Source: Bacteroidales bacterium (GTDB lineage Bacteria; Bacteroidota; Bacteroidia; Bacteroidales; UBA7960). From it: a DNA stretch of 58,700 bases. The position numbers were made by a program, and so were the translations under genes. The DNA lies in assembly GCA_019429055.1 (NCBI GenBank), contig JAHYJP010000002.1, positions 1 to 58,700 on the forward strand. Direction: 5' to 3'. The notes below the pieces were generated by a model, which was not told where the DNA came from, did no database searches, and saw nothing but the letters and a program-made list of their open reading frames with translations. This document shows positions 41,604 through 42,281 of the stretch, piece by piece; the stretch's first letter is position 1; the number at the start of each line of letters is the position of its first letter.

Positions 41604-41626
41604 CGAAATGTAAAAATTGCATAACG
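41604..41626. promoter_or_regulatory. ModE-like box A (5' of the SUOX-like lipoprotein)
   Basis: CGAAATGTAAAAATTGCATAACG; matches boxes B and C and the CGnTAT..ATAACG ModE-box pattern. Confidence 0.6.
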
Positions 41627-41821
41627 CAAAAGTGCAAATATTTTTCTTCATATTTAACCAGGTATTAATAATTTGAAATGATTATAAATTAATTAAGATG
41701 ATATTCTTTAAAGTATTGTTTTGCAAGTTATTGCGAATTTGGTTCAATGGATAAATAATCCGACTTTTCAAAGTTTCAGAAATTTGTACTAATATTGCGG
41801 CCAAATCAGAATGGTGTAGCT

Positions 41822-42193
41822 ATGATTAAGCCCGAAAAATTAAAACTGAACTATAAGTTCTGGATTGAAACAGAGTCTGGTTTAAGTGTATTGGGCGAAG
41901 GAAAATGGAAATTACTTAAAGCCATTCGTGATACCGGTTCTTTGAAGGCTGCCGTTGAAAAAATGGGGTACACCTATCGTCAGACCTGGCAAAATCTTAA
42001 GAATATTGAAGATAAGCTGGGCTTTAAACTTATTGAAAAAAGCAGGGGAGGCGAAAAGGGTGGCGAAACCGTTCTTACAGCTAAAGGAGAACTTATAGTT
42101 GCTTTCTTTGATAAGCTTTACACCGATGTTGAACCGGGGATAAAAAAATCATTTGAAAGGATGGTTGAAGATTTAAATAAAATTGTTGATTGA
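41822..42193 (+). CDS. modE: Standalone ModE-type (LysR-like wHTH) molybdenum regulator without molbindin domains
   Basis: GEGKWKLLKAIRDTGSLKAAVEKMGYTYRQTWQNLKNIEDKLGFKLIEKSRGGEKGGETVLTAKGELIV is the ModE N-terminal domain signature. Confidence 0.88.
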   Translation: MIKPEKLKLNYKFWIETESGLSVLGEGKWKLLKAIRDTGSLKAAVEKMGYTYRQTWQNLKNIEDKLGFKLIEKSRGGEKGGETVLTAKGELIVAFFDKLYTDVEPGIKKSFERMVEDLNKIVD

Positions 42194-42208
42194 TATTTTT
42201 TTGTTTAC

Positions 42209-42231
42209 CGATATGCAGATTCTGCATAACG
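42209..42231. promoter_or_regulatory. ModE-like box B
   Basis: CGATATGCAGATTCTGCATAACG; near-palindromic ATATGCAG-ATT-CTGCATAA. Confidence 0.72.
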
Positions 42232-42258
42232 AAAATTAAATCCTGTTTTTTTATAAAC

Positions 42259-42281
42259 CGTTATGCAAATATTGCATAATC
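42259..42281. promoter_or_regulatory. ModE-like box C (immediately 5' of the TonB receptor)
   Basis: CGTTATGCAAATATTGCATAATC; perfect 8-bp arms TTATGCAA-ATA-TTGCATAA. Confidence 0.72.

What the first reader, a model, noticed from the sequence alone, without database searches (positions are those of the whole stretch)
41604..42281. Three matching 23-bp ModE-type operators flank a standalone modE gene
Box A CGAAATGTAAAAATTGCATAACG (41604-41626), box B CGATATGCAGATTCTGCATAACG (42209-42231) and box C CGTTATGCAAATATTGCATAATC (42259-42281) align without gaps as CG(A/T)(A/T)ATGYARAWWYTGCATAAY(G/C). Their ends resemble the classical enterobacterial ModE box (CGnTAT..ATAACG). Box A lies 18-40 bp 5' of the SUOX-like lipoprotein; B and C lie between modE and the TonB receptor. 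This predicts one regulon covering modE, the lipoprotein and the receptor. The regulator has no molbindin domain, so a separate Mo sensor (possibly the nearby Mop protein) would be needed.
Basis: partly seen in the sequence, partly recalled or inferred. Interest (0 to 1): 0.8.

Follow-up and report, generated by a model that had tools for sequence, protein, structure and literature searches.

The report
ModE-type operators controlling metal-oxyanion uptake
Three matching DNA switches beside a small regulator gene are real and conserved across related bacteria; they most likely let the cell turn an outer-membrane molybdate/tungstate uptake system on and off, using a regulator that lacks the metal-sensing half of the well-studied version.

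Summary
Boxes A, B and C lie at the stated coordinates, far beyond chance (0.06 expected), and are the genome's only sites within 3 mismatches of the palindrome. The same sites recur upstream of the orthologous lipoprotein in 13 of 13 related loci and in 11 of 11 usable modE-to-receptor/wtpA gaps; a leave-relatives-out matrix beats 300/300 shuffles each time. In family genomes without modE such sites are no commoner than a reversed control. In the rest of the order the box is 24 bp (9-6-9, E. coli ModE geometry); in this family mostly 23 bp (9-5-9). The order-wide strict box falls before modE, wtpA, receptor operons and, unexpectedly, P5C dehydrogenase. The regulator folds like the ModE DNA-binding domain and has no molbindin domain. 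Standalone Mop occurs only in modE-bearing family genomes (5 of 9 versus 0 of 28). Most likely this ModE represses a TonB-dependent molybdate/tungstate uptake system; sensing through Mop is plausible but untested. Corrections: the binding protein is WtpA-type; modE has no box at its own promoter here; 'SUOX-like' is only weakly supported. New variant of a known kind.

The parts
41604..41626 (-). Box A, ModE-type operator 17 bp upstream of the lipoprotein gene; reads CGTTATGCAATTTTTACATTTCG towards that gene
   Evidence: a site is conserved in 13 of 13 related intergenic regions
42209..42231 (+). Box B, ModE-type operator, best-scoring of the three, between modE and the TonB receptor
42259..42281 (+). 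Box C, ModE-type operator 17 bp upstream of the receptor start codon
41822..42193 (+). modE-like gene, 123 aa, winged-helix DNA-binding domain only, no TOBE/molbindin domain
   Evidence: only TIGR00637 hit in the genome
40495..41586 (-). Putative outer-membrane lipoprotein, 363 aa, two related domains, recurrent neighbour of WtpABC and TonB receptors in the order
40185..40391 (-). Mop (molbindin), 68 aa, standalone TOBE protein downstream of the lipoprotein gene on the same strand
   Evidence: (TIGR00638 above cut-off)
42299..44602 (+). TonB-dependent outer-membrane receptor, 767 aa
44757..45713 (+). wtpA-type tungstate/molybdate binding lipoprotein (TIGR03730 above cut-off); WtpB and WtpC homologues are elsewhere in the genome beside an aldehyde ferredoxin oxidoreductase gene

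Best explanation
Boxes A, B and C are operators of the adjacent standalone ModE-like protein. A ModE dimer binds each 9-5-9 palindrome, which sits over or next to the core promoter, and represses two divergent units when molybdate/tungstate is plentiful: lipoprotein-mop on one side, receptor and probably wtpA on the other. When the metal is scarce the repressor leaves and the cell makes an outer-membrane uptake system: TonB receptor plus surface lipoprotein, feeding WtpA and the WtpBC permease encoded elsewhere. Because the regulator lacks a molbindin domain, the metal signal must arrive in trans; Mop is the best candidate carrier. Shown by sequence: operators, conservation, co-occurrence with modE, target genes. 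Inferred: binding by this ModE, repression rather than activation, metal as signal, Mop as sensor.
For: Sites unique to this locus in the genome and beyond chance. A leave-relatives-out matrix finds a box in all 13 lipoprotein-side gaps and in 11 of 11 modE-downstream gaps that have room and lead to a receptor, a receptor remnant or wtpA; no site where the next gene is unrelated (L047). Spacer scan: in the family only spacer 5 is enriched (19 sites versus 0.33 in shuffles), in the rest of the order only spacer 6 (15 versus 0.67); spacer 6 is the E. coli ModE geometry ATCGNTATATA-N6-TATATANCGAT (PMC545781). Family genomes with modE: 22 sites to 8 control hits in 9 genomes; without: 28 to 38 in 28. 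Order-wide strict 24-bp box: 28 sites against 3 controls, 23 of 28 next to modE, wtpA, receptor operons or P5C dehydrogenase. The regulator matches E. coli and Agrobacterium ModE by profile (E 5.7e-14 and 1.4e-17) and by fold. Boxes abut a Bacteroidota -7 element (TAnnTTTG) in several relatives. WtpA is above its cut-off. Mop co-occurs with ModE.
Against: No binding or expression data. TIGR00637 scores below its cut-off (69 versus 98.5 bits). Half-sites differ from E. coli at positions 7-8 (GC instead of AT). No exact -7 element is found in the window itself. Four of nine modE-bearing family genomes show no standalone Mop, though the assemblies are incomplete. The WtpBC/AOR locus of this genome carries no box.
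Confidence: 0.82

Rival explanations
1. ModE binds the boxes but activates rather than represses, or does so without sensing metal (constitutive local regulator).
For: E. coli ModE activates some operons (background stated in PMC11980592); the protein lacks a sensor domain.
Against: Boxes lie mostly 13-30 bp from start codons and overlap or abut the core promoter in relatives, a repressor layout; targets are uptake genes, for which repression in plenty is the usual logic.
Confidence: 0.1
2. ModE is metal-responsive but the sensor is not Mop: ModE itself, or the TOBE domain of the WtpC-type ATPase, carries the signal, and Mop only stores the oxyanion.
For: Four modE-bearing family genomes have no standalone Mop hit but do have a TOBE-bearing ATPase, and the modE-bearing genomes outside the family in that sample show no standalone Mop either. 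A close Mop relative, Tub, is a storage protein (PMC11980592).
Against: Standalone Mop above cut-off occurs in 5 of 9 modE-bearing and 0 of 28 modE-less family genomes (p = 0.0003), and mop follows the lipoprotein gene in three loci. Storage would also explain this, so it is not decisive.
Confidence: 0.5
3. A different, unlinked transcription factor binds the boxes and the modE gene is only a neighbour.
For: No direct binding evidence; half-sites differ from E. coli at two positions.
Against: Sites track modE across genomes, have ModE-box geometry, and sit at modE's own promoter elsewhere in the order.
Confidence: 0.06
4. Chance matches or a dispersed repeat element.
For: None found.
Against: 0.06 expected and no other copy in the genome within 3 mismatches; conserved positions in 13 loci.
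Confidence: 0.01

Closest known systems
Escherichia coli ModE and its operator (ATCGNTATATA-N6-TATATANCGAT)
   Same: Winged-helix fold (1b9m, 1o7l), palindromic half-site CGnTAT, control of Mo uptake genes
   Different: No molbindin domains; spacer 5 instead of 6 bp at these three sites; half-site ends mostly GCA instead of ATA; targets include a TonB receptor and a surface lipoprotein
Standalone ModE DNA-binding domains of Desulfovibrio and Desulfotalea (PMC545781), and Agrobacterium putative ModE 2ijl
   Same: ModE DNA-binding domain alone; in Desulfovibrio a separate molbindin-bearing protein (integrase-Mop fusion) is encoded in the mod cluster
   Different: The Desulfovibrio predicted site is CGGTCACG-N14-CGTGACCG, unlike the E. 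coli-type palindrome here; the separate partner here is a plain 68-aa Mop
Campylobacter jejuni ModE-like regulator of separate Mo and W transporters (Taveirne 2009, listed in PMC7759655; paper not read)
   Same: By its title, a single ModE-like protein controls separate Mo and W transporters
   Different: No TonB receptor or surface lipoprotein in that regulon as far as I know; details are from memory
Mop/Tub storage proteins (PMC11980592; 1gug, 9beb)
   Same: Single TOBE domain of about 70 aa; anion-site residues S4, R6 and K60 are present in the window Mop
   Different: Here it is linked to and co-occurs with a sensor-less ModE; metal and role not tested
WtpABC tungstate/molybdate transporter
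   Same: Binding protein above the WtpA cut-off; WtpB and WtpC homologues in the genome
   Different: wtpA is separated from wtpBC and placed behind a TonB receptor

Membership tests
ModE family (DNA-binding domain) | ModE-type winged-helix DNA-binding domain | tested here: met
   Profile to 2ijl E=1.4e-17 and 1b9m E=5.7e-14; Foldseek best hits 1b9m, 2ijl, 1o7l
ModE family (DNA-binding domain) | TIGR00637 curated cut-off (98.5 bits) | tested here: not met
   69.2 bits; the same model passes its cut-off in only 2 of 7 matching control genomes
Full-length (E. coli-type) ModE | C-terminal tandem molbindin/TOBE domains | tested here: not met
   123 aa, no TOBE hit; so filed only as a ModE-like DNA-binding-domain protein
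ModE operator | 24-bp palindrome with half-site CGnTAT and spacer 6 | tested here: inconclusive
   Half-site core met; 23 bp here, 24 bp in the rest of the order and at some family sites
ModE operator | Binding by the cognate ModE | not testable with these tools
   Needs EMSA or DAP-seq
ModE regulon | Operators precede Mo/W transport or Mo/W enzyme genes | tested here: met
   WtpA behind the receptor here; order-wide sites at modE, wtpA and receptor operons
WtpA | TIGR03730 cut-off 242.75 bits | tested here: met
   288.4 bits; sequence match to AF_0094
Mop (molbindin) | TIGR00638 cut-off 55 bits | tested here: met
   76.4 bits
Sulfite-oxidase-fold (PF00174) protein | PF00174 gathering score or structural match | tested here: not met
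   No hit for the window protein, sub-threshold hits in a few homologues (E 0.015-0.13), hhalign to MsrP probability 16%, no PDB fold match
Molybdate/tungstate TonB receptor | Transport of the oxyanion or a complex of it | not testable with these tools
   Assigned by regulation and neighbours only

The most novel reading that the evidence does not exclude
A 'split ModE': the DNA-binding protein and the metal-binding molbindin are separate proteins that act together as a molybdate/tungstate sensor, controlling a TonB-dependent outer-membrane import system for the oxyanion in which a two-domain surface lipoprotein is the capture partner; in relatives the same switch also controls an NAD-dependent aldehyde (P5C) dehydrogenase.
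Probability: 0.3. Interest if true: 0.78.

Novelty: new variant of a known kind. Interest (0 to 1): 0.6.

Why it matters
Outer-membrane transport of molybdate and tungstate is poorly understood; my ten searches of the held open-access library found no described TonB-dependent system for it. Here regulation, gene order and phylogeny all point to one, with a named receptor, lipoprotein and binding protein that can be tested. The sensor-less ModE beside a standalone Mop makes the question of how such truncated ModE proteins respond to metal directly testable. The operator length difference between related families is a simple case for studying regulator-operator co-evolution.

Tried and rejected
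Own-genome scan with a loose pattern: mostly background. Looking for a box at the WtpBC/AOR locus and at the second AOR-like gene: none within 4-6 mismatches. 24-bp box in own genome: one 3-mismatch hit inside a gene, equal to control, treated as chance. PF00174 in 61 relatives: none, so no local SUOX protein for comparison; E. coli MsrP used instead, with a weak result. Foldseek of the full lipoprotein: no usable match. Rejected: box as transcription terminator (none found); sigma-70 promoters (no more than in shuffles). Literature searches for a TonB molybdate receptor or a Bacteroidota ModE regulon found nothing on point. The Studholme and Pau 2003 paper on ModE boxes is not held.

Full report
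Observation. In the 4.18 Mb genome the symmetric palindrome CGTTATGCA-N5-TGCATAACG (up to 3 mismatches) occurs exactly three times, against none for the reversed control; A, B and C have 3, 1 and 2 mismatches and account for all three. Reading start codons from the sequence (lipoprotein 41586 minus, receptor 42299 plus), A and C each end 17 bp before their gene and have the same orientation relative to it.

Genes. The regulator (41822-42193) matches the ModE DNA-binding domain: TIGR00637 at 69 bits, below its cut-off; profile match to Agrobacterium 2ijl and E. coli ModE; AlphaFold model (pLDDT 90) whose best PDB matches are ModE structures. It has no TOBE domain and is the only such protein found in the genome. 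The 68-aa Mop is above the TIGR00638 cut-off, matches solved molbindins and has serine 4, arginine 6 and lysine 60 at positions that PMC11980592 lists for the anion site (sequence). The gene after the receptor encodes a WtpA-type binding protein (TIGR03730 above cut-off; AF_0094). A WtpC-like and a WtpB-like gene lie on another contig next to an aldehyde ferredoxin oxidoreductase, a tungstoenzyme type. So the genome uses tungstate or molybdate, and the binding protein is separated from its permease.

Conservation in the family. In relatives with modE at 64-89% identity the order lipoprotein-modE-receptor-wtpA largely recurs, with boxes in the same gaps. A half-site matrix trained without the locus under test and its nearest relatives found a site in all 13 lipoprotein-side gaps and in 11 of 11 modE-downstream gaps that have room and lead to a receptor, a receptor remnant or wtpA, each above 300 of 300 dinucleotide shuffles. 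Seven of those 11 carry two clear sites. The gap in L047, where an unrelated gene follows, has none, and in L041 modE and receptor are 15 bp apart with no room. The window and its nearest relative are 91% identical inside box A and 68% outside it; for B and C box and flank do not differ (73% and 75%), so that pairwise comparison helps only for A.

Link to ModE. In family f1, nine of the sampled genomes have modE. They hold 22 palindromes (up to 3 mismatches) against 8 reversed-control hits; the 28 genomes without modE hold 28 against 38 (rank test p=0.0007). E. coli ModE's consensus is ATCGNTATATA-N6-TATATANCGAT (PMC545781), a 9-6-9 palindrome. Scanning all spacers from 0 to 15, the family's loci show clear enrichment only at spacer 5 (19 sites versus 0.33 in shuffles) and the other loci of the order only at spacer 6 (15 versus 0.67). 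Some lipoprotein-side sites in one genus of the family are 24 bp, and one distant locus has a 23-bp site, so the length difference is a strong tendency, not a rule.

Order-wide regulon. A strict 24-bp pattern gives 28 sites in 23 of 296 genomes against 3 for the reversed pattern. Annotating all 28: 9 precede L-glutamate gamma-semialdehyde (P5C) dehydrogenase, 7 precede lipoprotein genes that in examined loci lead into a TonB receptor operon, 2 precede a receptor directly, 3 precede modE, 2 precede wtpA; 5 are unassigned, one of them inside a coding frame. Genomes with the lipoprotein family are enriched for the strict box (13 of 54 versus 10 of 242, p=1.8e-5; related genomes are not independent). 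The lipoprotein is present in 54 of 296 genomes of the order and repeatedly sits with TonB receptor, WtpA, WtpB, WtpC and ModE, so it is a steady part of this uptake system.

Lipoprotein. It has a signal-peptide-like start with a cysteine, two mutually related domains (hhalign E=8e-5) and strictly conserved charged and aromatic residues. Treat the label as a lead.

Mechanism. In several relatives the box abuts an exact TAnnTTTG motif (the Bacteroidota -7 element, from general knowledge), or two boxes flank it. In the window no exact motif is present. Operators at the core promoter fit repression. modE itself has no box at its start in the window (box A is 195 bp away), unlike distant relatives. 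Since the regulator has no sensor domain, metal information must come from elsewhere. Standalone Mop above cut-off occurs in 5 of 9 modE-bearing family genomes and none of 28 without modE (p=0.0003); in two of the five it lies away from the modE locus and has no clear box. This supports a functional tie but does not separate sensing from storage. Desulfovibrio offers a parallel: standalone ModE domains with a separate Mop-bearing protein in the mod cluster (PMC545781).

Verdict. Real, conserved ModE-type operators; a new variant of a known kind of regulon, with an outer-membrane uptake system attached and a sensor-less regulator. Binding, direction of control and metal response remain untested.

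Noticed in passing
L173, L176, L182, L183, L184, L185, L190, L191, L193: Nine of 28 strict 24-bp ModE-type boxes across the order stand in front of L-glutamate gamma-semialdehyde (P5C) dehydrogenase. In two other loci a box precedes an aldehyde ferredoxin oxidoreductase gene (L126, L093). A switch between a tungsten-dependent and an NAD-dependent aldehyde oxidation route is one possible reading.
   Followed up: partly
L128 1980-3611, L131 8640-10312, L142 9138-10759: In distant relatives the box leads an operon of two further lipoproteins (about 200 and 300 aa; the smaller weakly resembles NigD) followed by the TonB receptor and the two-domain lipoprotein; these extra lipoproteins are not seen in the window locus.
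   Followed up: partly
L046 10413-10505: In this relative only about 31 C-terminal residues of the TonB receptor remain between modE and wtpA, while boxes, lipoprotein, mop and wtpA are kept.
   Followed up: no
L125 4283-4603: modE reads as two in-frame pieces separated by a stop codon near the recognition helix; pseudogene or sequencing error. Its box is 23 bp although the genome is outside the family.
   Followed up: no
L090 4774-10737: In the window's own genome WtpB and WtpC homologues sit divergently from an aldehyde ferredoxin oxidoreductase, next to a sigma-54-type regulator, without a ModE-type box.
   Followed up: partly
window 45703-46029: A 109-aa open frame on the minus strand after wtpA without any family match.
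   Followed up: no
window 50315-56812: A 2165-aa open frame made of many similar repeats with a C-terminal sorting-type end.
   Followed up: no
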